Shown here in pieces: positions 12,137 through 21,671 of a stretch of 64,000 nucleotides of DNA (position 1 is its first letter; each line of letters begins with the position of its first letter). Position numbers and translations under genes: made by a program. This stretch comes from an uncultured Rubrobacteraceae bacterium (GTDB taxonomy: Bacteria; Actinomycetota; Rubrobacteria; Rubrobacterales; Rubrobacteraceae). Below the pieces are notes generated by a model. The model ran no database searches. It was not told where the DNA came from and saw nothing but the letters and a program-made list of their open reading frames with translations. The stretch covers positions 62,001 to 126,000 of the forward strand of contig CADCVH010000108.1 of assembly GCA_902806085.1 (NCBI GenBank), written 5' to 3'.

Positions 12137-13546
12137 CTACTCTCCCCTGATCTCGGTTTGTTCTTGCTCTCGACCGGACGGTATTCTAGCGGCCTTGCGC
12201 TCCGGTTTGACGAGCCTCCCGACCGGCTCCGAGACGACCCTGCCGTCTCGGAAGACCGTCGTCCCGCGCACGATAGTACGGACGACCCTGCCCTGGAAAG
12301 CACGTCCGACGTAGGGGCTCGTTTTGTGGCGGTAGAAGAGATCGTGCGGTTTCACGGTGGTCATCTCCCCGAGGTCCACCAGCGCGAGGTCGGCGTCGGC
12401 GCCGACTCCTATCCCGCCCTTGCCGCAGAGCCCGAACCGCCCGGCCACGTTGGCAGAGGTAAGGGCGGCGACGTTTTCGAGTGGCAGTCCGCGTCCATGG
12501 TGGCCCTCGTCCAGCATCACGTTCAGGAGGGACTGGCAACCGGCGATGCCGCCCCAGGCGCGGAACATGTCGGCGCCGACCTTCATCTCGGGTGGGCAGG
12601 GCGAGTGGTCCGAGGTGACGAAGTCTACGTTCCCGTCTAGGAGCCGGTCCCAGAGGTCTTCGAGATCTCCGCGTGGGCGGAGTGGCGGGGCGCACTTGGC
12701 GACCGCGCCGAGGGCTTCGGCGTCCTCGTCGGTGAGAATGAGGTAGTGGGCGCAGGTCTCGCAGGTGACGTCCACACCCCGGGCACGGGCTTCGGCCACG
12801 AGGGCCACGCCGCGGCCGGTGCTCACGTGGACCACGTGCAGCGGGCAGCCGGTCTCCTCGGCGAGGAGGATGGCGCGGCAGATAGCTTCCAGTTCCGCCA
12901 CCACAGGACGCGAGTCCAGGTAGTCGCGCATCGCGGTCCTGAGGGTACCGGCGGCGCGGCGGGTTAGCCCGTCCGTGATCTCCTTGTTCTCCGCGTGAAC
13001 CAGTACCGGGAGGCCGAGCCGAGCCGCCTCCCGCATCCCTTCGAAAAGCGTCAGGTCGTCCGCGGGCGCGTAGTCCAGGGTGCCGGTCGTGGACATGAAC
13101 GCCTTGAACCCGGCGACGCCCCTCTCCGCCAGTTCCTCCAGGCGTCCCAGATTGCCGGGCACGAGCCCGCCGTAGAACGCGAAGTCCACCAGGGAGGATC
13201 CTTCGGCCAGCGCGACCTTCTCGTCGAAGCCCGCCGCGTCGCAAGTGGGCGGATAGGCGTTCAGCGGCATCTCGACGTAAGAAGTGAGGCCGCCGGCGGC
13301 CAGCGCCCGGGAGCCCGTGGCAAAGCCCTCCCAATCGGTGCGCCCGGGCTCGTTGAAGTGGGCGTGGGCGTCGATGGCACCCGGGAAGACGTGCAGGCCC
13401 CGGGCGTCTATCTCCTCGGCTGCGGCGCCCTCTATGTCGGGCTCGACGGCGGAGATCCTGCCGTCAGAGACGGCGAGGTCGGCCTCGCGCGGGCCGTCCG
13501 CCCCGACGAGGGTTCCGCCGCGCAGGGTCAGGTCGTGCGCGCTCAA
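12137..13546 (-). CDS. allB: Allantoinase (cyclic amidohydrolase)
   Basis: 469 residues. Start is TTG at 13546, overlapping the allC stop (TTGA) with GGAGG 7 bp upstream; the longer open frame upstream is antiparallel noise inside allC. Amidohydrolase superfamily, dihydroorotase-like: metal ligands in DAHAHFNEPGRTDWEGF near residue 57, the carboxylated Lys in GFKAFMS near 148, His in LVHAEN near 184 and HVVHVS near 240, and catalytic Asp in TSDHSPCPP near 313. It opens allantoin to allantoate in the cytoplasm. The FNEPGR-x-DWEG signature fits allantoinase better than hydantoinase, and the uricase pathway genes upstream agree. Confidence 0.92.
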   Translation of the reverse strand: MSAHDLTLRGGTLVGADGPREADLAVSDGRISAVEPDIEGAAAEEIDARGLHVFPGAIDAHAHFNEPGRTDWEGFATGSRALAAGGLTSYVEMPLNAYPPTCDAAGFDEKVALAEGSSLVDFAFYGGLVPGNLGRLEELAERGVAGFKAFMSTTGTLDYAPADDLTLFEGMREAARLGLPVLVHAENKEITDGLTRRAAGTLRTAMRDYLDSRPVVAELEAICRAILLAEETGCPLHVVHVSTGRGVALVAEARARGVDVTCETCAHYLILTDEDAEALGAVAKCAPPLRPRGDLEDLWDRLLDGNVDFVTSDHSPCPPEMKVGADMFRAWGGIAGCQSLLNVMLDEGHHGRGLPLENVAALTSANVAGRFGLCGKGGIGVGADADLALVDLGEMTTVKPHDLFYRHKTSPYVGRAFQGRVVRTIVRGTTVFRDGRVVSEPVGRLVKPERKAARIPSGREQEQTEIRGE

Positions 13547-14769
13547 GTCCTCACCTCCGCGACCAGCCGGATAAAGCGTCCCAGCGTTCTTATGGCGACC
13601 TCCACGTCCTCTTTCGCGACCGACTCGGCCGGGTTGTGGCTGATGCCCTCCTCGCAGCGGACAAAGAGCATGGCGATGGGGGCGAGGACGGAGACCTGCG
13701 CCGCGTCGTGGCCGGCGCCGCTCGGCAGACGGTGCACGGGGAGGCCGGTGTCTTCGACGGCCCCCGCGAGCAGATCGCTGAGTCCCCGGTCGGCCGGGAC
13801 GGCGGGGGTCTCCTGGCGCAGTTGCCACTCGCAAGAGCAGCCGTTTTCCGCGGCGATCTCGGCGGCCCTGCGTTCCAGGTTGTCGCGCAGGAGTTCGCGC
13901 ACCCCATCGACCGGGTGGCGCAGGTCCAGGGAGAGACGGGCCTCGCCGGGGACCACGTTGATCGCCCCCGGGAGCGCCCGTATCTCCCCGACCGTCGCCA
14001 CCGCCGGCGGCTCCTCCCTGGCGCAACTACTAGCTTCCAGGACGAACCCCGCCGCCGCGCACAGAGCATCCTTGCGGCCCTCCATCGGCACCGTACCCGC
14101 GTGCCCGGCCTTACCCCTAAAGGCGATCCTGACGCGGCTCTGGCCGTTGATCGCCGTGACCACCCCGACGGGCAGGCCGAGGTCCTCCAGCACCGGACCC
14201 TGCTCTATGTGGACTTCGCAGTAGCCGAGGAGGTCCGCCGGGTCCCGGCCGCTCACTTCCAGGGCGAACGGGTCGCCCCCGAAGGCGCGCACCGCCTCCA
14301 TGAGGGTCACGCCGCCCCCATCCTCCAGGTCCAGACGCTTGCGGTCGAAGGCGCCGGCGTAGGCGGAACTGCCGAGAAAGGTCGTGCCAAAGCGCAGCCC
14401 CTCCTCGTCCGCGAAGGCGACGACCTCTATCGCGAACGGCAAACGTTCGCCGCGGTTGTGGAGTTGCTGGACGCAGGCGACGGCGGAGAGGACGCCCAGG
14501 ATGCCGTCGTAGCGGCCGGCGTCGCGCACGGTGTCCAGGTGGGAGCCGAGGAGGAGGGTCTTCTCTCCCGTCCCCTCGTAGCGGCCGACGAGGTTGCCTA
14601 TCTCGTCGCGGCCGGTCGTCATGCCGGCCATCCGCATCCAGCCGGCCACGATGCTGTTCGCCTCGTTCATCGCCCGGGAGCCGTAGGGGCGGACGATCAG
14701 GCCCGGCTCCCCGCTGATGTTGGCGAGCAGGTCGCACCGCTCCATCACGGTCGCCGCGGTGTCTCTCAC
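13543..14769 (-). CDS. allC: Allantoate amidohydrolase (M20 / hydantoinase-carbamoylase family)
   Basis: 408 residues, GTG start with GGGAG upstream. M20-type zinc hydrolase: metal and catalytic residues in LLGSHLDTV near residue 74, GRYDGILGV near 86 and FADEEGLRF near 118 (adjacent acid pair), His in EVHIEQGPVLE near 188, dimerisation/lid segment GKAGHAGTVPM near 220, and the C-terminal His in SGAGHDAAQ and EGISHNPAES. It releases ammonia and CO2 from allantoate to give ureidoglycine or ureidoglycolate. Beta-ureidopropionase and N-carbamoyl amino acid hydrolases are close relatives; adjacency to allantoinase decides the call. Confidence 0.88.
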   Translation of the reverse strand: MRDTAATVMERCDLLANISGEPGLIVRPYGSRAMNEANSIVAGWMRMAGMTTGRDEIGNLVGRYEGTGEKTLLLGSHLDTVRDAGRYDGILGVLSAVACVQQLHNRGERLPFAIEVVAFADEEGLRFGTTFLGSSAYAGAFDRKRLDLEDGGGVTLMEAVRAFGGDPFALEVSGRDPADLLGYCEVHIEQGPVLEDLGLPVGVVTAINGQSRVRIAFRGKAGHAGTVPMEGRKDALCAAAGFVLEASSCAREEPPAVATVGEIRALPGAINVVPGEARLSLDLRHPVDGVRELLRDNLERRAAEIAAENGCSCEWQLRQETPAVPADRGLSDLLAGAVEDTGLPVHRLPSGAGHDAAQVSVLAPIAMLFVRCEEGISHNPAESVAKEDVEVAIRTLGRFIRLVAEVRT

Positions 14770-14787: not shown

Positions 14788-16275
14788 CTAGCCGCGGCCT
14801 CGCACGGGCCCGTCTTCGTCCAGGACCACCGTCCTGTGGCGCCTGGCTATCGCCCAGTACATCACGGACGCGATGCCGGCCCCGACAAACCAGGAGAACG
14901 GGGCGAGGTCGCCAAACCGTGGGATCAGCGCCACGATTAGGGCGATGATCGAGGCGGGCGCGAAGGCGTAGAGGGCGTCGGGGTTCCAGCCTCGCCTGTA
15001 CCAGTACGGCCCGGCCGATCCTTCGCGGAAGAGGGCGTGGACCTCTATCCGTCCCCGCTTTATGAGGTAGTAGTCCGCGACGATGACGCCGAAGATCGGG
15101 CCAAGCAGGGCCCCAAGGCCGCCCAGGAAGTAGTTTATGGCGACGGGGCTGTTGAAGATGTACCAGGGCATCACCATCACGGCGAGGAGCGCCGTGATCA
15201 GGCCGCCGCGCCTGAAGTCTATGTATTTAGGGAACGCGTTGGCGAAGTCGTAGGAGGGCCCGACGAAGTTCGCGACGATGTTGATCCCGACCGTCGCGAG
15301 CGCGAAGGTGACGGCCCCTATGACTATGGCCAATGTACTCGGGATCTCCGCGACGAGCTCGACGGGGTCCGTGATGGCCTCGCCGTAGACGGCTATGGAC
15401 CCCGCGGTGGTGACCACGACGACCGCCGAGAACAGCATGAAGTTGACGGGCAGGCCCCAGAAGTTGCCCCGACGGACCATGCGCTCCGAGGGCGCCCAGC
15501 GCGAGAAATCGCAGAAGTTGAGCATCAGCGTGGAGAAGTAGCTCACGACGAGGGCGACGGCCGTAAAGAAGAGGAAGATCGTCTGGCCGGCAGAGAGGTC
15601 GCGGGAGCCGAGGGAGAAGTCCATGTCGGAGCCGGCCTCGTACCAGATCCAGGCCGCGAGCACGAACATGGCGACGTAGATCGCGGGGCCCGACCAGTCC
15701 ACGAGCGTGCGGATGGAGTCCATGCCGTGGCGCAGGACGAGCAACTGGACGAGCCACATCAGCAGGAAGCAGGCCCAACCCAAAGTGGAGAGCCCCAGGA
15801 TCGAGTTCTGGTTCAAAGAATCGAGCCCCGGGAAGATCTCGAGGAGGAGGATGAGCACCGCCACCGAGGCCAGCCACGTCTGGATGCCGTACCAGAACGT
15901 CGCTATGACCGCCCGCGTCAGCGCGGGGAGGTTCGCCCCGAAGACCCCGAAGCTGATCCGCGCGAGCACCGGATAAGGTATTCCCTGCCGCTGCCCCGCG
16001 ACGCTGATGAGGTTCATCAGGAAGTAGACGGCCGTTATGCCGACCATCAGCGCCAGGAATACCTGCCACCCCGTCAGCCCCAGAAAGAACAACCCGGCGG
16101 CGAACGTGTAGCCGCCGATGCTGTGCACGTCAGCCATCCACGTGGCGAAGAGGCTATAGGTGGTCCATCCCCGCTCTTCGTCCTTTAGCGGCCGGAGGTC
16201 TTCGTTGTAGAGCCGCTCGCTGTAGTCGCCCGAAACTACCCCCGCTTCGCGCCCGGACACCGTCTGCTCAGACAT
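14788..16275 (-). CDS. NCS1-family permease, probably for allantoin or a related hydantoin/purine
   Basis: 495 residues, ATG start, about 12 transmembrane helices. NCS1 signatures are RLYNEDLRPLKDEERGWTTY and WMADVHSIGGYTFAAGLFFL at the N-terminus, ARISFGVFGANLPALTRA near 105, and FWYGIQTWLAS near 127, with the family's usual length. NCS1 transporters are Na+ or H+ symporters for hydantoins, allantoin, cytosine or uracil. Placed between allC and uraH, allantoin is the best guess (PucI-like). The 155-bp gap upstream has no strong promoter, so it is probably read from the 20.1-kb promoter. Confidence 0.88.
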   Translation of the reverse strand: MSEQTVSGREAGVVSGDYSERLYNEDLRPLKDEERGWTTYSLFATWMADVHSIGGYTFAAGLFFLGLTGWQVFLALMVGITAVYFLMNLISVAGQRQGIPYPVLARISFGVFGANLPALTRAVIATFWYGIQTWLASVAVLILLLEIFPGLDSLNQNSILGLSTLGWACFLLMWLVQLLVLRHGMDSIRTLVDWSGPAIYVAMFVLAAWIWYEAGSDMDFSLGSRDLSAGQTIFLFFTAVALVVSYFSTLMLNFCDFSRWAPSERMVRRGNFWGLPVNFMLFSAVVVVTTAGSIAVYGEAITDPVELVAEIPSTLAIVIGAVTFALATVGINIVANFVGPSYDFANAFPKYIDFRRGGLITALLAVMVMPWYIFNSPVAINYFLGGLGALLGPIFGVIVADYYLIKRGRIEVHALFREGSAGPYWYRRGWNPDALYAFAPASIIALIVALIPRFGDLAPFSWFVGAGIASVMYWAIARRHRTVVLDEDGPVRGRG

Positions 16276-16430: not shown

Positions 16431-16784
16431 TCAACTCCCCCTGTAAGTGCTATAGGAGTAAGGGGAGGCGAGTAGTGGGACGTGGTAGTGGGAATCGGAG
16501 TCCGCGACACCGAACCGGACCGGGACATGCGTCAGGAAGGGCGGGTCCGGCAGGTTCGGCTCCCCGGAGAAGTACCCGGCGACGTCGAAGACGATCTCGT
16601 AGAGCCCGATGGAGAACTCCTCTGTTCCTAGCAGCGGTTCGTCCGTCCGGCCGTCGGCGTTTGTCCGAAGCGTCTTTAGGCGTTTTCGCTCCCCGTCTCC
16701 GACGGCGAACAGCTCTATAGACATGCCCGCGGCGGGCCGGCCGTTGGCGGTGTCGAGGACGTGGGTGGTGAGAAAGCCGCTCAC
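16431..16784 (-). CDS. uraH: 5-hydroxyisourate hydrolase (transthyretin-like)
   Basis: 117 residues from a GTG overlapping the uricase stop (GTGA). Transthyretin-related protein: N-terminal FLTTHVLDTANGRPAAGM (catalytic His in TTHVLD), Arg in LRTNADGRTDEPLL, His in SDSHYHVPLLASPY, and the C-terminal hallmark YRGS exactly at the end. It hydrolyses 5-hydroxyisourate, the product of uricase, to OHCU in the cytoplasm. It works directly between the two neighbouring genes of the operon. Confidence 0.95.
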   Translation of the reverse strand: MSGFLTTHVLDTANGRPAAGMSIELFAVGDGERKRLKTLRTNADGRTDEPLLGTEEFSIGLYEIVFDVAGYFSGEPNLPDPPFLTHVPVRFGVADSDSHYHVPLLASPYSYSTYRGS

Positions 16785-17650
16785 GGGCTTCGCTCTACCC
16801 AGCCTTCGATCTGGCCGTAGGGGTCTTGGGTGGCGTGCAGGATCTCGCCGTCGTTCTCGATACCGAAGCGCCCCAGGTCGTAGACGATGTGGTGCACGTT
16901 CGGGAAGGAGTACCAGATCCTCTCTATCTCCGGATACGCCTCCAACACCGCTTTGCCCATCCGGTACAGCGTGTTCTGCACCGAGGGGCTGTAGTGGTCC
17001 GTGAAGGTTTCGAGGGTGCTCCGCATAACGCCGCCCCATACCCGGTCGAAGTCCGCGTCCGGGGCGTTGTACTCCCATTTCGCGGTGACGATGGTGGCGA
17101 GGACGCGGTCGTCCGTATCCGGAAGGGTGGTGAACCGCTCCCGGTAGAACTTCTCCCAGCCGGAGTTCGTCGTCTTCAGGACGTATACGTCGTCGATGCC
17201 GGCCTCGACCTTACGGTCGCCGCTTTTGTCGCCCCAGACCTTCGCCTTGCGCTCGCCGCGCTCGCGGACGAACGAATGCTCGTGGGGTTTGCCGTCCACC
17301 TCGATCCTGCGCCACGGGAACTGCGTGATCCAGATCCAGCAGCCCGTCACGGTCGGCCCGGCCTCGAGGAAGTGGTCCACGAGCGCCAGGCCGAACTCCT
17401 CTATGTTCCCGGTGAGATGGTCTTTCGCCAGCGCGTAGACCGTGTTGCGCATCGTGTCGGTGGCGAGCAGTTGGGAGTTGTCGCCTTCGTAGTGGGCGGC
17501 GTCGAAGTCCCCTTCCAGCGATACGCGGACGTCCAGGTCCCATGCCTCGTGGACCTCGGTGTCCCGCTTCACCTTGAAGAGGCGGACCTCGGACTTGCCG
17601 TAGTTGTTCTGGCCGAGGACTATCTTCGCCTTCGCGGTCGTCTCGCTCAT
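16781..17650 (-). CDS. uox: Urate oxidase (uricase)
   Basis: 289 residues, ATG start overlapping the uraD stop (ATGA). Two T-fold (tunnelling-fold) domains. Family marks are LGQNNYGKSEVRLFKV at residues 12-27 (catalytic Lys in YGKS), SQLLATDTMRNTVYALAKDH near 59 (catalytic Thr in TDTM), KTTNSGWEKF near 160, and VQNTLYRMGKAVLE and FPNVHHIVYDLGRFG near 250 (catalytic Asn-His). It oxidises urate with O2 to 5-hydroxyisourate and H2O2, without cofactor. No peroxidase or catalase is next to it. Confidence 0.95.
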   Translation of the reverse strand: MSETTAKAKIVLGQNNYGKSEVRLFKVKRDTEVHEAWDLDVRVSLEGDFDAAHYEGDNSQLLATDTMRNTVYALAKDHLTGNIEEFGLALVDHFLEAGPTVTGCWIWITQFPWRRIEVDGKPHEHSFVRERGERKAKVWGDKSGDRKVEAGIDDVYVLKTTNSGWEKFYRERFTTLPDTDDRVLATIVTAKWEYNAPDADFDRVWGGVMRSTLETFTDHYSPSVQNTLYRMGKAVLEAYPEIERIWYSFPNVHHIVYDLGRFGIENDGEILHATQDPYGQIEGWVERSP

Positions 17651-18198
17651 GATGCATCTCCTCCGTTGGCGGGCTCCCCCACCAGGTCCTCCAGCCTGCG
17701 ACGCGAGATCCTGGCTATCTCCCCAAGGGCGGCCTCTATTTCTTCTCTACGCGAGTTCGCCAGACGTCGTCTGGCACCGGCGAAGATCGTCTCTTTGGTG
17801 TGGTCGCGGACGCAGACCACATAAGGCAAACCGAACTTCTCCCGGTACGCGGTGTTCAGGTGGTGGAACTCCGCGTACTCTTCCGGCGAGAGCCTGTCCA
17901 GGCCGGCCGACGCCTGCTCGCTCGCGGACTCGCTCGTCAACTCGCCGGCGAGCGCGGCCTTCCCGGCGAGATCCGGGTGGGCCCGGATCAGGGCTACCCG
18001 TCCCTCCATTGTGGCGCGGTGGACGGTGTCGACGAACGCCCCGTGCAGCCCGTCGAGGTCGTCGAAGGGGCGTTCTTGCCAGGCCCCTTTCGCGACCCAG
18101 GGCGAGTGCTCGAAGAGCGAACCGAAGCGGGAGATAAACTCCTCCGCGTCCATGCGGTTGACCTCTTCGATGGAGAACTTTTTCGGCATCTCTCCCAC
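17647..18198 (-). CDS. uraD: OHCU decarboxylase (stand-alone, catalytic residues intact)
   Basis: 183 residues from a GTG right after the upstream TAA; an ATG at codon 4 is an equally possible start. All-helical OHCU decarboxylase: FEHSPWVAKGAW near residue 29, the catalytic His in RAHPDLAGKAAL near 71, SASEQASAGLD near 90 with the conserved Glu-Gln, and FGLPYVVCVRDHTKETIF near 122. It decarboxylates OHCU to S-allantoin. It lies between uricase and a permease that carries a second, degenerate OHCU domain, so this copy is probably the active one. Confidence 0.93.
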   Translation of the reverse strand: MGEMPKKFSIEEVNRMDAEEFISRFGSLFEHSPWVAKGAWQERPFDDLDGLHGAFVDTVHRATMEGRVALIRAHPDLAGKAALAGELTSESASEQASAGLDRLSPEEYAEFHHLNTAYREKFGLPYVVCVRDHTKETIFAGARRRLANSRREEIEAALGEIARISRRRLEDLVGEPANGGDAS

Positions 18199-20130
18199 TT
18201 ATCTGCGCGCGCCCGTGAGGGACTCTTCGAGCAGGTCCTGCAGGCGGTAGTTGGCTATCTTGACGGTCTCCACTATAGAGATGAGGAGCTCCTGCTCCCT
18301 GCTGTGTTTGATCCTGGATGCCGCGTCTTCCAACAAGGTCTCCTTCGAGTGGTCCCGGATGGCGGTGACCAGCGGAAAGCCGAACTTCTCCTCGTAAACC
18401 CGGTTCATCTCCCCGTACCTCTCCTCTTCCTCGGGCGTGAGGCTGGTCAGCCCCACCGCCTCGCGCTCCCGGACTGAGAGCCCGGAGAGGCCTTCGCGGG
18501 CGGTCGCGCCGCCGCCGAGGGGCGGGTAGGCCCGTAGGAGTTCGGCCTGGCGTTCTGCGGGCGCGTCGTAGACGACGGTCTGGAAGGCGTGGCGCAGGTC
18601 GTGGATGCCGGAGAACGGGTGCTCCCGGTCGTAGGCCGCCTCCACCACCCAGCGCTCGCCCTGAAAGAGCGGGGCGAACCTTTCTGCGAACTCGTCCCGC
18701 ACGAGCCGGTTCGCCTCCATCACGGTCAGCTTCTCTTCGACCGTGCCCGTCTGCTCCACCAGGTCGTGGGTCTCCGGGCGGCGGCCGACGAGGTTGAAGA
18801 GCACGTTCAGGAGGATGGCCGCGATGCTCGCGGCGGTGATGCCGCTCTCGAAGACTATCCGCACACCCTCCGGAAACCCGCCGTAGAACTCGGGGAGTGC
18901 GGCCGGGATCACGCCGACGGCGATGGCGACAGCTACGATGATGAGGTTCCGGTTGTCCGTCAAGTCCACCCTCGAAAGCGTCTGGATGCCCGCCGCGGCC
19001 ACCGTCCCAAAGAGGACCAGACCCGCCCCGCCCAACACGGGAAGCGGTATCGCGGCGACCACCGCCGCGAGCTTGGGAAAGAGGCCCAGGAGCACCAGGA
19101 TCACGCCGGCCACAGCCACCACGAACCGGCTCTTGATGCCCGTGAACCTGACGAGCCCCACGTTCTGGGCGAAGGCGGTGAACGGGAAGGAGTTGAAGAG
19201 GGCGCCCAATGCCGTCGAGATGCCGTCCGCCCTGAGGCCCCGGGCCACGTCGTCCGAGCCGACGCGCTTCTCCGTGATCTCGCCTATCGCCAGGATGTCC
19301 GCCGTGGTCTCGACCATGACGATGAGCATGACCAGCGTCATGGAGAGTATGGGGACGATCTGGAACGTAGGCGCCCCGAAAAAGAAGGGGACCGAGACCC
19401 CAACCCACCCCGCGTCCGCGACCCCACCGAAGTCCGCCTCCCCGAGCACCGCCGCCACGACGGTCCCGAGGACGAGCCCCATCAAGATCGCCACCCGGCT
19501 CAAGAAACCGCCGAACAGCCCCCCGAAGAAGCGTGTGATCGCGAGTATCAAGACGAGCGTCAGGAACGCGAGCCCGATGTTGGCCGGGCTGCCGAAGTCC
19601 GGCGCATCCGGGACCCCGCCCGCCGCCCACCGGATCGCCACCGGCATCAACGAGACGCCGATGATCGTGATGATCGACCCCGTCACCACCGGCGGGAAAA
19701 AGCGCAACAACTTCCCGAAGAAAGGCGCCGCCAACACGGTCAACAGCCCCGCCACGATCACCGACCCGTAGACCCCGCGCAGCCCGTACTCGCTCCCGAT
19801 CAGGATCATCGGCGTCACCGCCGCGAACGTCGTCCCCTGCACTATCGGCAACCTTACCCCGAACTTCCAGAACCCGATGGTCTGAATCAGGGTCGCAACC
19901 CCGCACATGAGGAAGCTCGCGTTGATGATGTACACCAACTGCTCCGGTGGCAACTCCAGCGCCGTGGCCACGATCAACGGCACCGCGATGATCCCCGCGT
20001 ACATCGTCATCACGTGCTGTAACCCAAACGCCGCCATTCGTCCCGCCGGCAGCACCTCGTCCACCGGATGAACCCCGCCCGGCCTCTCTACCCGCTCCTC
20101 AACCATACCCTTTCCCCTATGTGTTTCCAT
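18199..20130 (-). CDS. NAT/NCS2 xanthine-urate permease fused to a degenerate OHCU-decarboxylase-like domain
   Basis: 643 residues. Residues about 25-470 form a nucleobase-ascorbate transporter: FGLQHVMTMYAGIIAVPLIV near 35, FGVRLPIVQGTTFAAV near 88, VETTADILAIGEI near 275, and NAT signature-like AFAQNVGLVRFTGIKSRFV near 318. The last 165 residues are OHCU-decarboxylase-like (FGFPLVTAIRDHSKETLLED) and align with the stand-alone uraD next door. The HPDLA catalytic motif reads YPPLG near residue 533 and the SxxEQ motif reads SVREREA, so catalysis is unlikely. The permease probably brings in urate or xanthine; the tail may dock UraD. First gene of the operon. Confidence 0.92.
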   Translation of the reverse strand: METHRGKGMVEERVERPGGVHPVDEVLPAGRMAAFGLQHVMTMYAGIIAVPLIVATALELPPEQLVYIINASFLMCGVATLIQTIGFWKFGVRLPIVQGTTFAAVTPMILIGSEYGLRGVYGSVIVAGLLTVLAAPFFGKLLRFFPPVVTGSIITIIGVSLMPVAIRWAAGGVPDAPDFGSPANIGLAFLTLVLILAITRFFGGLFGGFLSRVAILMGLVLGTVVAAVLGEADFGGVADAGWVGVSVPFFFGAPTFQIVPILSMTLVMLIVMVETTADILAIGEITEKRVGSDDVARGLRADGISTALGALFNSFPFTAFAQNVGLVRFTGIKSRFVVAVAGVILVLLGLFPKLAAVVAAIPLPVLGGAGLVLFGTVAAAGIQTLSRVDLTDNRNLIIVAVAIAVGVIPAALPEFYGGFPEGVRIVFESGITAASIAAILLNVLFNLVGRRPETHDLVEQTGTVEEKLTVMEANRLVRDEFAERFAPLFQGERWVVEAAYDREHPFSGIHDLRHAFQTVVYDAPAERQAELLRAYPPLGGGATAREGLSGLSVREREAVGLTSLTPEEEERYGEMNRVYEEKFGFPLVTAIRDHSKETLLEDAASRIKHSREQELLISIVETVKIANYRLQDLLEESLTGARR

Positions 20131-20249: not shown

Positions 20250-21671
20250 CTAGCCGGGCGTGAGGCCGAAGACGCTCAGGGCCGAGTAGATGCCGAGCAG
20301 GACGATGGCGATGCTGCTGATTATCAGGACCGCGTTGAAGAAGCCGCTTCCGTAGAGGCGGGGGTCCACCTCGGTGCGGCGCAGGTACCAGACGGCCACC
20401 ACCACCGCGAGCAGGAAGATGCCGGTGGCGACGCCGCCGATCTGGACCATCAAGACCGGGGACTGGATGAACAGGTAGGCCGCACCCCAGAGGATCGGCA
20501 GCGCCACGGTGAAGATGCGGATCCAGCGCAGGCGGGTCTGGGTGTCCTGCCAGTCAAGGACGCCCACCGTGGACAGAAGGTTGGTGCACATCCGCGACCA
20601 GCTCGGTATCGCGGCCCACAGGGTCGAGCCGAGCACCGCGACGGCCCCGATCAGGAAGAGGATGCTGGCCCAGCTGCCTAAAGTGTCGGTGTAGATGCGC
20701 GAGAGCGTGGTGATCATCTCGTTGCCCTCGGGCACGAGGCCCTGCGGCTGGAGGACGGCGGCGCCCATGATGAAGAAGGCAAGCGTGCCGAAGGTGTAGA
20801 TGCACCAGGAGACGAAGGCGTCCTTGTACATCACCCGGATCCAGCCGTTCGCCCGCCGCGCCCACTCCTCGCTGCCGTCGTTCGGGCCGACCCAGCGGGC
20901 GTAGCCCTTCTCGACGCACCAGTAGGTGTAGAAGGTGATCTCGTCTGCCCCAACACCGGTGATCCCGAACATCGCGATGGCCGCACCCAAAGCGCCCGCC
21001 GGTATGGCGAAGGTGAGGCCGCCCAGGATGTCGCCCGTGCTGTAGGCGAACGGCGTGAACGGCAGGCCCAGCGCGATGAGGATGGTGACCGTCGAGAAGA
21101 CCACGACGAGCATGACGGCCCCGCGCTCGATGAGGCTGTAATTGTTGGAGTAGAGCAGGGCGATGCTGCCGGCGACCACGATGCCCGTCCAGATCGCGGT
21201 GGACATGAACCCGAGCGGGTCGCCCCCTAGCGGAAACAGCACGCTGAAGGCTATGGCCACACCCCCGACGATGCCGCCGATCTGGAGGATCTTGGAGAGC
21301 GCCATGAAGCTCCACAGCAGGTTGACCCAACCGATCGGGCCGAGCCTGGGCGGCACCTTGTTGTAGCCCGTGAGCGCCGGCTGGCCGGTCGAGATGGTCC
21401 AGCGGGCGAACTCTATCTGCACCGCCACCTTGACGAGGGTGCTGAAGATGACCATCCACAGGATGGCGAACCCGGCCTGGGCGCCGAGGGTCGTGGTGGC
21501 GATCAACTCGCCCGAACCGACGATGGAGGCGCTTAGGATCAAACCCGGCCCGAAGTACCGCAGGCTCGCCCCCCAACCTTTAGGAGGCTCCTGTATGCCT
21601 TCCGGCGTCAGATGGTACGCATCGTCGTCCGTAACCGACTTCAGGACCACCCCGCCCTCGTCCGCAGCCAT
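20250..21671 (-). CDS. Nramp-related transporter lacking the metal-binding DPGN motif
   Basis: 473 residues, about 11-12 transmembrane helices, Nramp (SLC11-like) layout with GPGLILSAS at residue 41. In true Nramp metal transporters the next segment is DPGN; here it reads GSGE (residues 52-55, Asp to Gly and Asn to Glu). The helix-6 Met-Pro-His motif is replaced by FGITGVGADEITFYTY near 233. The Mn2+/Fe2+ site is therefore absent. Position between the urate operon and xanthine dehydrogenase, same strand, hints at an organic or other cation substrate. Start ATG at 21671 has GGAGGAGG upstream. Confidence 0.8.
   Translation of the reverse strand: MAADEGGVVLKSVTDDDAYHLTPEGIQEPPKGWGASLRYFGPGLILSASIVGSGELIATTTLGAQAGFAILWMVIFSTLVKVAVQIEFARWTISTGQPALTGYNKVPPRLGPIGWVNLLWSFMALSKILQIGGIVGGVAIAFSVLFPLGGDPLGFMSTAIWTGIVVAGSIALLYSNNYSLIERGAVMLVVVFSTVTILIALGLPFTPFAYSTGDILGGLTFAIPAGALGAAIAMFGITGVGADEITFYTYWCVEKGYARWVGPNDGSEEWARRANGWIRVMYKDAFVSWCIYTFGTLAFFIMGAAVLQPQGLVPEGNEMITTLSRIYTDTLGSWASILFLIGAVAVLGSTLWAAIPSWSRMCTNLLSTVGVLDWQDTQTRLRWIRIFTVALPILWGAAYLFIQSPVLMVQIGGVATGIFLLAVVVAVWYLRRTEVDPRLYGSGFFNAVLIISSIAIVLLGIYSALSVFGLTPG

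What the first reader, a model, noticed from the sequence alone, without database searches (positions are those of the whole stretch)
18199..20130. Purine permease fused to a catalytically dead OHCU-decarboxylase domain beside an intact uraD
The C-terminal 165 residues of the NAT permease are an OHCU-decarboxylase paralogue with HPDLA changed to YPPLG (catalytic His lost) and SxxEQ altered to SVRER. The next gene is a normal UraD with HPDLA. UraD-type proteins often dimerise, so the tail may dock active UraD (and perhaps uricase and UraH) at the membrane, coupling uptake to degradation.
Basis: partly seen in the sequence, partly recalled or inferred. Interest (0 to 1): 0.75.

Follow-up and report, generated by a model that had tools for sequence, protein, structure and literature searches.

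The report
Purine transporter with retired-enzyme tail
A bacterial purine transporter carries, as a permanent tail, a copy of a uric-acid-breakdown enzyme whose key catalytic histidine is replaced by tyrosine or phenylalanine in every relative found, while the working enzyme is kept as a separate gene, so the tail probably controls or organises the transporter rather than doing the chemistry.

Summary
Window 18199-20130(-) encodes a PbuX-type NCS2/SLC23 purine permease fused to a complete OHCU-decarboxylase (UraD) fold, with Tyr535 at the catalytic-His position. A normal uraD, uricase and uraH follow in the same operon. It is not a one-off. I found 54 distinct permease-UraD fusions, all in Actinomycetota. 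Position 67 (zebrafish numbering) is Tyr in 47, Phe in 7 and His in none, whereas every stand-alone UraD examined keeps His and Glu. Forty-three of 44 other fusion-bearing genomes also carry a stand-alone UraD. The 52 tails tested form one branch (support 100), lie in purine-catabolism loci, evolve under purifying selection and have their own set of invariant residues. This is therefore a conserved pseudoenzyme tail, not decay. Docking of UraD through the UraD dimer interface is less likely: most hosts have only the distant HPRIG-type UraD, and the tail has changed at a published interface position. I favour a STAS-like regulatory or self-associating tail that probably still binds a purine-pathway ligand. 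That mechanism is inferred. The tail also sits on two separate permease lineages, and RefSeq calls one such fusion uraD.

The parts
18199..20130 (-). Fusion gene: NCS2/SLC23 (PbuX-type) purine permease plus C-terminal UraD-like pseudoenzyme, 643 aa
18787..20043 (-). Permease domain, aa 30-448; NAT motif QNVGLVRFTG present
   Evidence: model matches UapA/UraA/SVCT1
18724..18786 (-). Linker aa 449-469; aa 453-464 predicted disordered (pLDDT under 50)
18223..18723 (-). UraD-fold tail, aa 470-636
   Evidence: PF09349/TIGR03164; model TM 0.94 to 2o70
18526..18528 (-). Tyr535 at the catalytic His position (zebrafish H67)
   Evidence: alignments
18466..18468 (-). Glu555 (zebrafish E87), kept here and Asp in most other fusions; followed by Arg556 in place of Gln88
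18649..18669 (-). LFQGERW (aa 488-494), fused-specific motif replacing UraD EHSPW; E492 aligns with zebrafish interface residue Cys25
   Evidence: PMC5445154
17647..18189 (-). Intact stand-alone uraD (HPDLA, SASEQ); ATG at 18189, alternative GTG at 18198 directly after the fusion's stop
16781..17650 (-). Uricase (uox), overlaps the end of uraD by 4 bases
16431..16790 (-). HIU hydrolase (uraH), transthyretin family; exact start not determined
14788..16275 (-). NCS1 permease, allantoin-permease-like; part of the same catabolic cluster
13543..14769 (-). Allantoate amidohydrolase (PRK09290 type)

Best explanation
The protein imports a purine (xanthine and/or urate) by the usual SLC23 elevator mechanism. 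Its C-terminal cytoplasmic domain is a UraD paralogue that cannot perform OHCU decarboxylation the UraD way and has been repurposed as a non-catalytic module, working like the STAS domain of the structurally related SLC26/SulP transporters. Most likely it self-associates within the transporter dimer and/or binds a pathway ligand in its remodelled pocket, and so adjusts transport to the state of uric-acid catabolism, while the separate UraD does the chemistry. Shown: the fusion, the fold, universal His loss in the sample, retention of a separate UraD, common ancestry of the tails, purifying selection, purine-pathway context. Inferred: non-catalysis, cytosolic position, self-association, ligand binding and control of transport.
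For: 54 distinct fusions have Tyr (47) or Phe (7) and never His, while all stand-alone UraDs in the same data keep His and Glu. The 52 tails tested are one side of a single branch, SH-aLRT 100. The tail has its own near-invariant residues that UraD lacks (F485, R513, L587, E621, plus Q490, G491, Y/F535, D/E555) while keeping shared residues such as W494, S552, Y579, P586, R592, so the pocket region looks rebuilt, not eroded. Tail dN/dS is 0.03-0.36, like the permease part (0.05-0.27). Separate UraD in 43 of 44 genomes. Neighbours are XDH subunits (27 of 35 loci), XdhC, guanine-deaminase-like amidohydrolase, PucR regulator, uricase and glyoxylate genes. The permease fold matches UapA/UraA/SVCT1 and, more weakly, SLC26 transporters, whose C-terminal STAS domain is regulatory and affects transport (PMC6497670). 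UapA acts as a dimer (PMC4837479) and UraD is a homodimer with a large interface (PMC5445154).
Against: No ligand, activity or transport data exist. Close permeases without the tail occupy the same operon position in Rubrobacteraceae (L008-L011), so the tail is probably dispensable for transport itself. AlphaFold2 gave monomers only, with a disordered linker, so no domain-domain contact is shown. Retained Glu/Asp and pocket residues would also fit residual or altered catalysis.
Confidence: 0.45

Rival explanations
1. Docking platform: the dead tail forms a UraD-like heterodimer with active UraD, and perhaps recruits uricase and UraH, placing the unstable-intermediate pathway at the import site.
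For: Separate UraD in 43 of 44 other fusion genomes; in 11 of 45 genomes uraD follows the fusion directly on the same strand, as in the window and in Rubrobacteraceae relatives, and so also in the Rhodococcus plasmid. UraD is a homodimer (PMC5445154).
Against: Partner UraD is the distant HPRIG type in 37 of 45 genomes and the HPDLA type in only 7, yet the tail stays under purifying selection. The EHSPW to QGx(R)W change lies at a UraD interface position (Cys25 equivalent). Co-occurrence with UraD is expected for any uricolysis-linked gene.
Confidence: 0.2
2. Neo-enzyme: the remodelled pocket (Tyr for His, Asp for Glu) catalyses a different reaction on a purine-pathway compound right after uptake.
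For: Conserved Tyr/Phe, acidic residue, Ser552, Arg592 and new invariants R513 and E621; purifying selection.
Against: The catalytic-position residue varies between Tyr and Phe and the acidic one between Asp and Glu, which suits binding better than catalysis. Tail-less close relatives occupy the same operon position, so no pathway step obviously depends on it.
Confidence: 0.15
3. Mere structural extension: the tail only stabilises the transporter dimer or its insertion and has no ligand or partner.
For: UraD is a dimer and SLC23 transporters dimerise; fold fully preserved; separate from the membrane part by a flexible linker.
Against: Many of the conserved changes lie in segments around the former active site (Y535, D555, LFQG, GFPL), more than a stabiliser would need.
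Confidence: 0.12
4. Decaying remnant: an accidental read-through fusion with the neighbouring uraD, tolerated because a second uraD exists.
For: Unfused permease and uraD genes touch or overlap in Deinococcus and Priestia and are adjacent in related Rubrobacteraceae, the likely precursor state.
Against: Single old origin of the tails, low dN/dS, own invariant residues, presence on two permease lineages.
Confidence: 0.03

Closest known systems
OHCU decarboxylase UraD (PF09349, TIGR03164; 2o70, 3o7h, 2o8i)
   Same: Whole fold, family score above curated cut-offs, many shared core residues
   Different: Catalytic His is Tyr/Phe, Glu mostly Asp, EHSPW replaced by LFQGx(R)W; fused to a permease; a normal UraD coexists
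NCS2/NAT/SLC23 purine permeases (PbuX, UapA, UraA)
   Same: Full permease domain, NAT motif, UapA/UraA fold, purine-catabolism locus
   Different: Has a folded C-terminal cytoplasmic domain; [quoted passage not shown]
SLC26/SulP transporters with STAS domain
   Same: Same 7+7 transmembrane architecture with a C-terminal soluble domain (works-like analogy)
   Different: Tail is UraD fold, not STAS; not a member
Bacillus PucL (UraD-uricase) and plant TTL (UraD-HIU hydrolase) fusions
   Same: UraD domain fused to another uricolysis component
   Different: Those UraD domains are active enzymes (PMC2834698 for TTL; PucL from general knowledge); this one lacks the His and is joined to a transporter

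Membership tests
UraD / OHCU decarboxylase | Family profile match and fold | tested here: met
   PF09349 123 bits, TIGR03164 122.5 bits over cut-off; TM 0.94 to 2o70
UraD / OHCU decarboxylase | Catalytic His (zebrafish H67) | tested here: not met
   Tyr535; Tyr or Phe in 54 of 54 fusions
UraD / OHCU decarboxylase | Catalytic-site Glu in SxxEQ (zebrafish E87) | tested here: inconclusive
   Glu in the window tail, Asp in 48 of 52 fusions
UraD / OHCU decarboxylase | OHCU decarboxylase activity | not testable with these tools
   needs purified protein
NCS2/NAT/SLC23 purine permease, PbuX type | Profile above curated cut-off | tested here: met
   TIGR03173 537 bits (cut-off 414), TIGR00801 384 bits (cut-off 292)
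NCS2/NAT/SLC23 purine permease, PbuX type | UapA/UraA fold | tested here: met
   top matches 5i6c, 8omz, SVCT1
NCS2/NAT/SLC23 purine permease, PbuX type | Transport of xanthine or urate | not testable with these tools
   inferred from family model and operon only
SLC26/SulP with STAS | C-terminal STAS domain | tested here: not met
   tail is UraD fold; analogy of arrangement only

The most novel reading that the evidence does not exclude
A class of SLC23 transporters whose catabolic-enzyme-derived pseudoenzyme tail senses an intermediate or end product of uric-acid breakdown in the cytosol and gates purine import: a direct feedback link from pathway to transporter evolved from the pathway's own enzyme.
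Probability: 0.3. Interest if true: 0.8.

Novelty: new variant of a known kind. Interest (0 to 1): 0.6.

Why it matters
It would give SLC23 transporters a regulatory C-terminal domain like the STAS domain of SLC26, and a clean case of an enzyme recruited into a transporter after losing its catalytic residue. It also marks an annotation trap: automated annotation names at least one such fusion uraD (Rubrobacter radiotolerans WP_084264147.1), so UraD presence can be called from a protein that lacks the catalytic His.

Tried and rejected
Stop or sequencing artefact joining two genes: rejected, since the same fusion recurs in dozens of species and at 82% identity over its whole length in a family member. 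Random pseudogene decay: rejected by tree, dN/dS and own invariants. Fusions keeping His: looked for in 395 Actinomycetes genomes with a full-length profile that does not key on that residue; none found. Fusions outside Actinomycetota: none in 299 Pseudomonadota and 201 Chloroflexota genomes; apparent plasmid hits in Deinococcus and Priestia are adjacent unfused genes. Bacillota and Deinococcota chromosomes were not sampled systematically. Single origin of the fused permeases: rejected (AU p = 4.5e-5) although the tails are one branch, so the tail moved to a second permease lineage or was lost repeatedly. A literature search found no description of the fusion; the key UraD mechanism papers are not held, so the role of His67/Glu87 in catalysis rests on my general knowledge, with the numbering checked by alignment. 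Co-folding tail with UraD was not possible with the tools.

Full report
OBSERVATION. The 643-codon frame at 18199-20130(-) is a single protein. Residues 33-414 match the permease family PF00860 and, over 35-446, the xanthine permease model TIGR03173 (537 bits, above cut-off). Residues 474-631 match OHCU decarboxylase PF09349 end to end and exceed the TIGR03164 cut-off. Zebrafish numbering transferred by profile alignment gives H67 = Tyr535, S84 = Ser552, E87 = Glu555 and Q88 = Arg556. The next gene is a normal UraD (HPDLA), followed by overlapping uricase and then uraH, NCS1 permease, allantoate amidohydrolase and allantoinase-like genes: a uricolytic gene cluster on one strand.

STRUCTURE. 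AlphaFold2 on locus-derived alignments models the tail at pLDDT 93; its best PDB match is zebrafish OHCU decarboxylase (target-normalised TM 0.94, rmsd 1.6 A). The full protein (pLDDT 91) has a 12-residue low-confidence linker at 453-464 between permease and tail. Its permease part matches UapA, UraA and SVCT1, and more weakly SLC26/prestin.

DISTRIBUTION. In the genus (9 genomes) only the window genome has the fusion; two mates have only stand-alone UraD. In the family (39 genomes) seven genomes carry intact fusions (one carries two), and two more carry broken or cut copies. A scan of genome contigs with the tail profile added 35 named fusions in Kribbella, Nocardioides, Geodermatophilus, Klenkia, Modestobacter, Flexivirga, Pseudonocardia, Haloechinothrix, Saccharopolyspora, Microlunatus, Intrasporangiaceae and others. 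A full-length profile found 10 in 395 Actinomycetes genomes, none in 299 Pseudomonadota or 201 Chloroflexota. Plasmid records add Rhodococcus qingshengii and Rubrobacter radiotolerans.

THE DECISIVE TABLE. In 52 distinct fused tails the His column is Tyr 46, Phe 6, His 0, and the Glu column is Asp 48, Glu 4. In 94 distinct stand-alone UraDs both columns are invariant (His 94, Glu 94). The two plasmid fusions add one Tyr and one Phe, and all further stand-alone UraDs in which that column could be read keep His. Total: 54 fusions, 47 Tyr, 7 Phe. Of 44 other fusion-bearing genomes, 43 contain a separate UraD, one of them frame-broken; the exception is a metagenome-assembled genome. Sampling bias: the contig scan used fused-type motifs, but the class-wide search did not depend on the His residue.

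EVOLUTION. The 52 tails lie on one side of one branch (SH-aLRT 100), next to type-1 UraDs from Rubrobacteraceae and a Solirubrobacter, so the His loss appears ancestral to all known fusions. The permeases carrying the tail are not one clade (AU p = 4.5e-5): the window's permease groups with tail-less Rubrobacteraceae permeases. The tail thus moved between permeases or was lost several times. In Deinococcus and Priestia unfused permease and uraD genes overlap or lie 3 bases apart, a plausible precursor. Tail dN/dS in 13 pairs is 0.03-0.36, comparable to the permease (approximate counting method). Fused-specific near-invariant residues (F485, Q490, G491, R513, Y/F535, D/E555, L587, E621) point to a distinct, maintained function.

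CONTEXT. In 35 named loci the recurrent neighbours are xanthine dehydrogenase subunits (27), an amidohydrolase of guanine-deaminase type (20), glyoxylate-carboligase-like TPP enzyme (19), XdhC (16), PucR regulator (15), glycerate kinase and uricase. The fusion belongs to purine catabolism.

MECHANISM. Against it, the partner UraD differs deeply: type 1 (HPDLA/HPEL) in seven Rubrobacteraceae genomes, type 2 (HPRIG, about 20-26% identical to the tail) in 37. The tail-specific motif LFQGx(R)W also replaces EHSPW at the position of zebrafish Cys25, which PMC5445154 places in the dimer interface. uraD is directly downstream in only 11 of 45 genomes. This favours tail-tail contacts and a pocket-based role. 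The nearest working analogy is the STAS domain on SLC26 transporters, which share the 7+7 fold; PMC6497670 states that SLC23 proteins lack carboxy-terminal domains, so this group departs from that rule. Ligand sensing, self-association and transport control are inferences, not results.

VERDICT. A real, conserved, apparently undescribed (in the literature held here) pseudoenzyme-tailed purine transporter family; new variant of a known kind; mechanism open.

Noticed in passing
L213:5965-7962 (Rubrobacter radiotolerans plasmid, WP_084264147.1): A 665-aa permease-UraD fusion with Tyr in place of the catalytic His is annotated simply as uraD in RefSeq; a misannotation that could spread.
   Followed up: yes
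G061 (loci L006 and L206): One genome of the family carries both permease lineages with tails plus a separate uraD; L206 has the same tail motifs as the R. radiotolerans plasmid copy.
   Followed up: partly
L018, L117 (G127) and likewise G117, G095: Tandem arrangement: fused permease, then a tail-less permease of the window's lineage, then uraD; a possible substrate for tail transfer between permeases.
   Followed up: partly
L225 (Pseudonocardia sp. CNS-004): The stand-alone uraD next to the fusion is split by a frameshift, so this strain may lack active UraD (or the draft has an error).
   Followed up: partly
L014 and L194 (G252, G356): Interrupted fusion copies (a stop at the permease/tail border near a contig end; an internal deletion plus a stop) in draft genomes, possible fission or assembly errors.
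   Followed up: no
L016-L019: A Rubrobacteraceae subgroup of tails has an insertion of roughly 20-25 residues (IDLSDE..LTP.EYE) right after the YPPLG motif.
   Followed up: no
window 20250-21671: An NRAMP-like transporter lies upstream of the purine operon on the same strand; in a genus mate (L004) its homologue lies directly next to uraD, with no permease in between.
   Followed up: no
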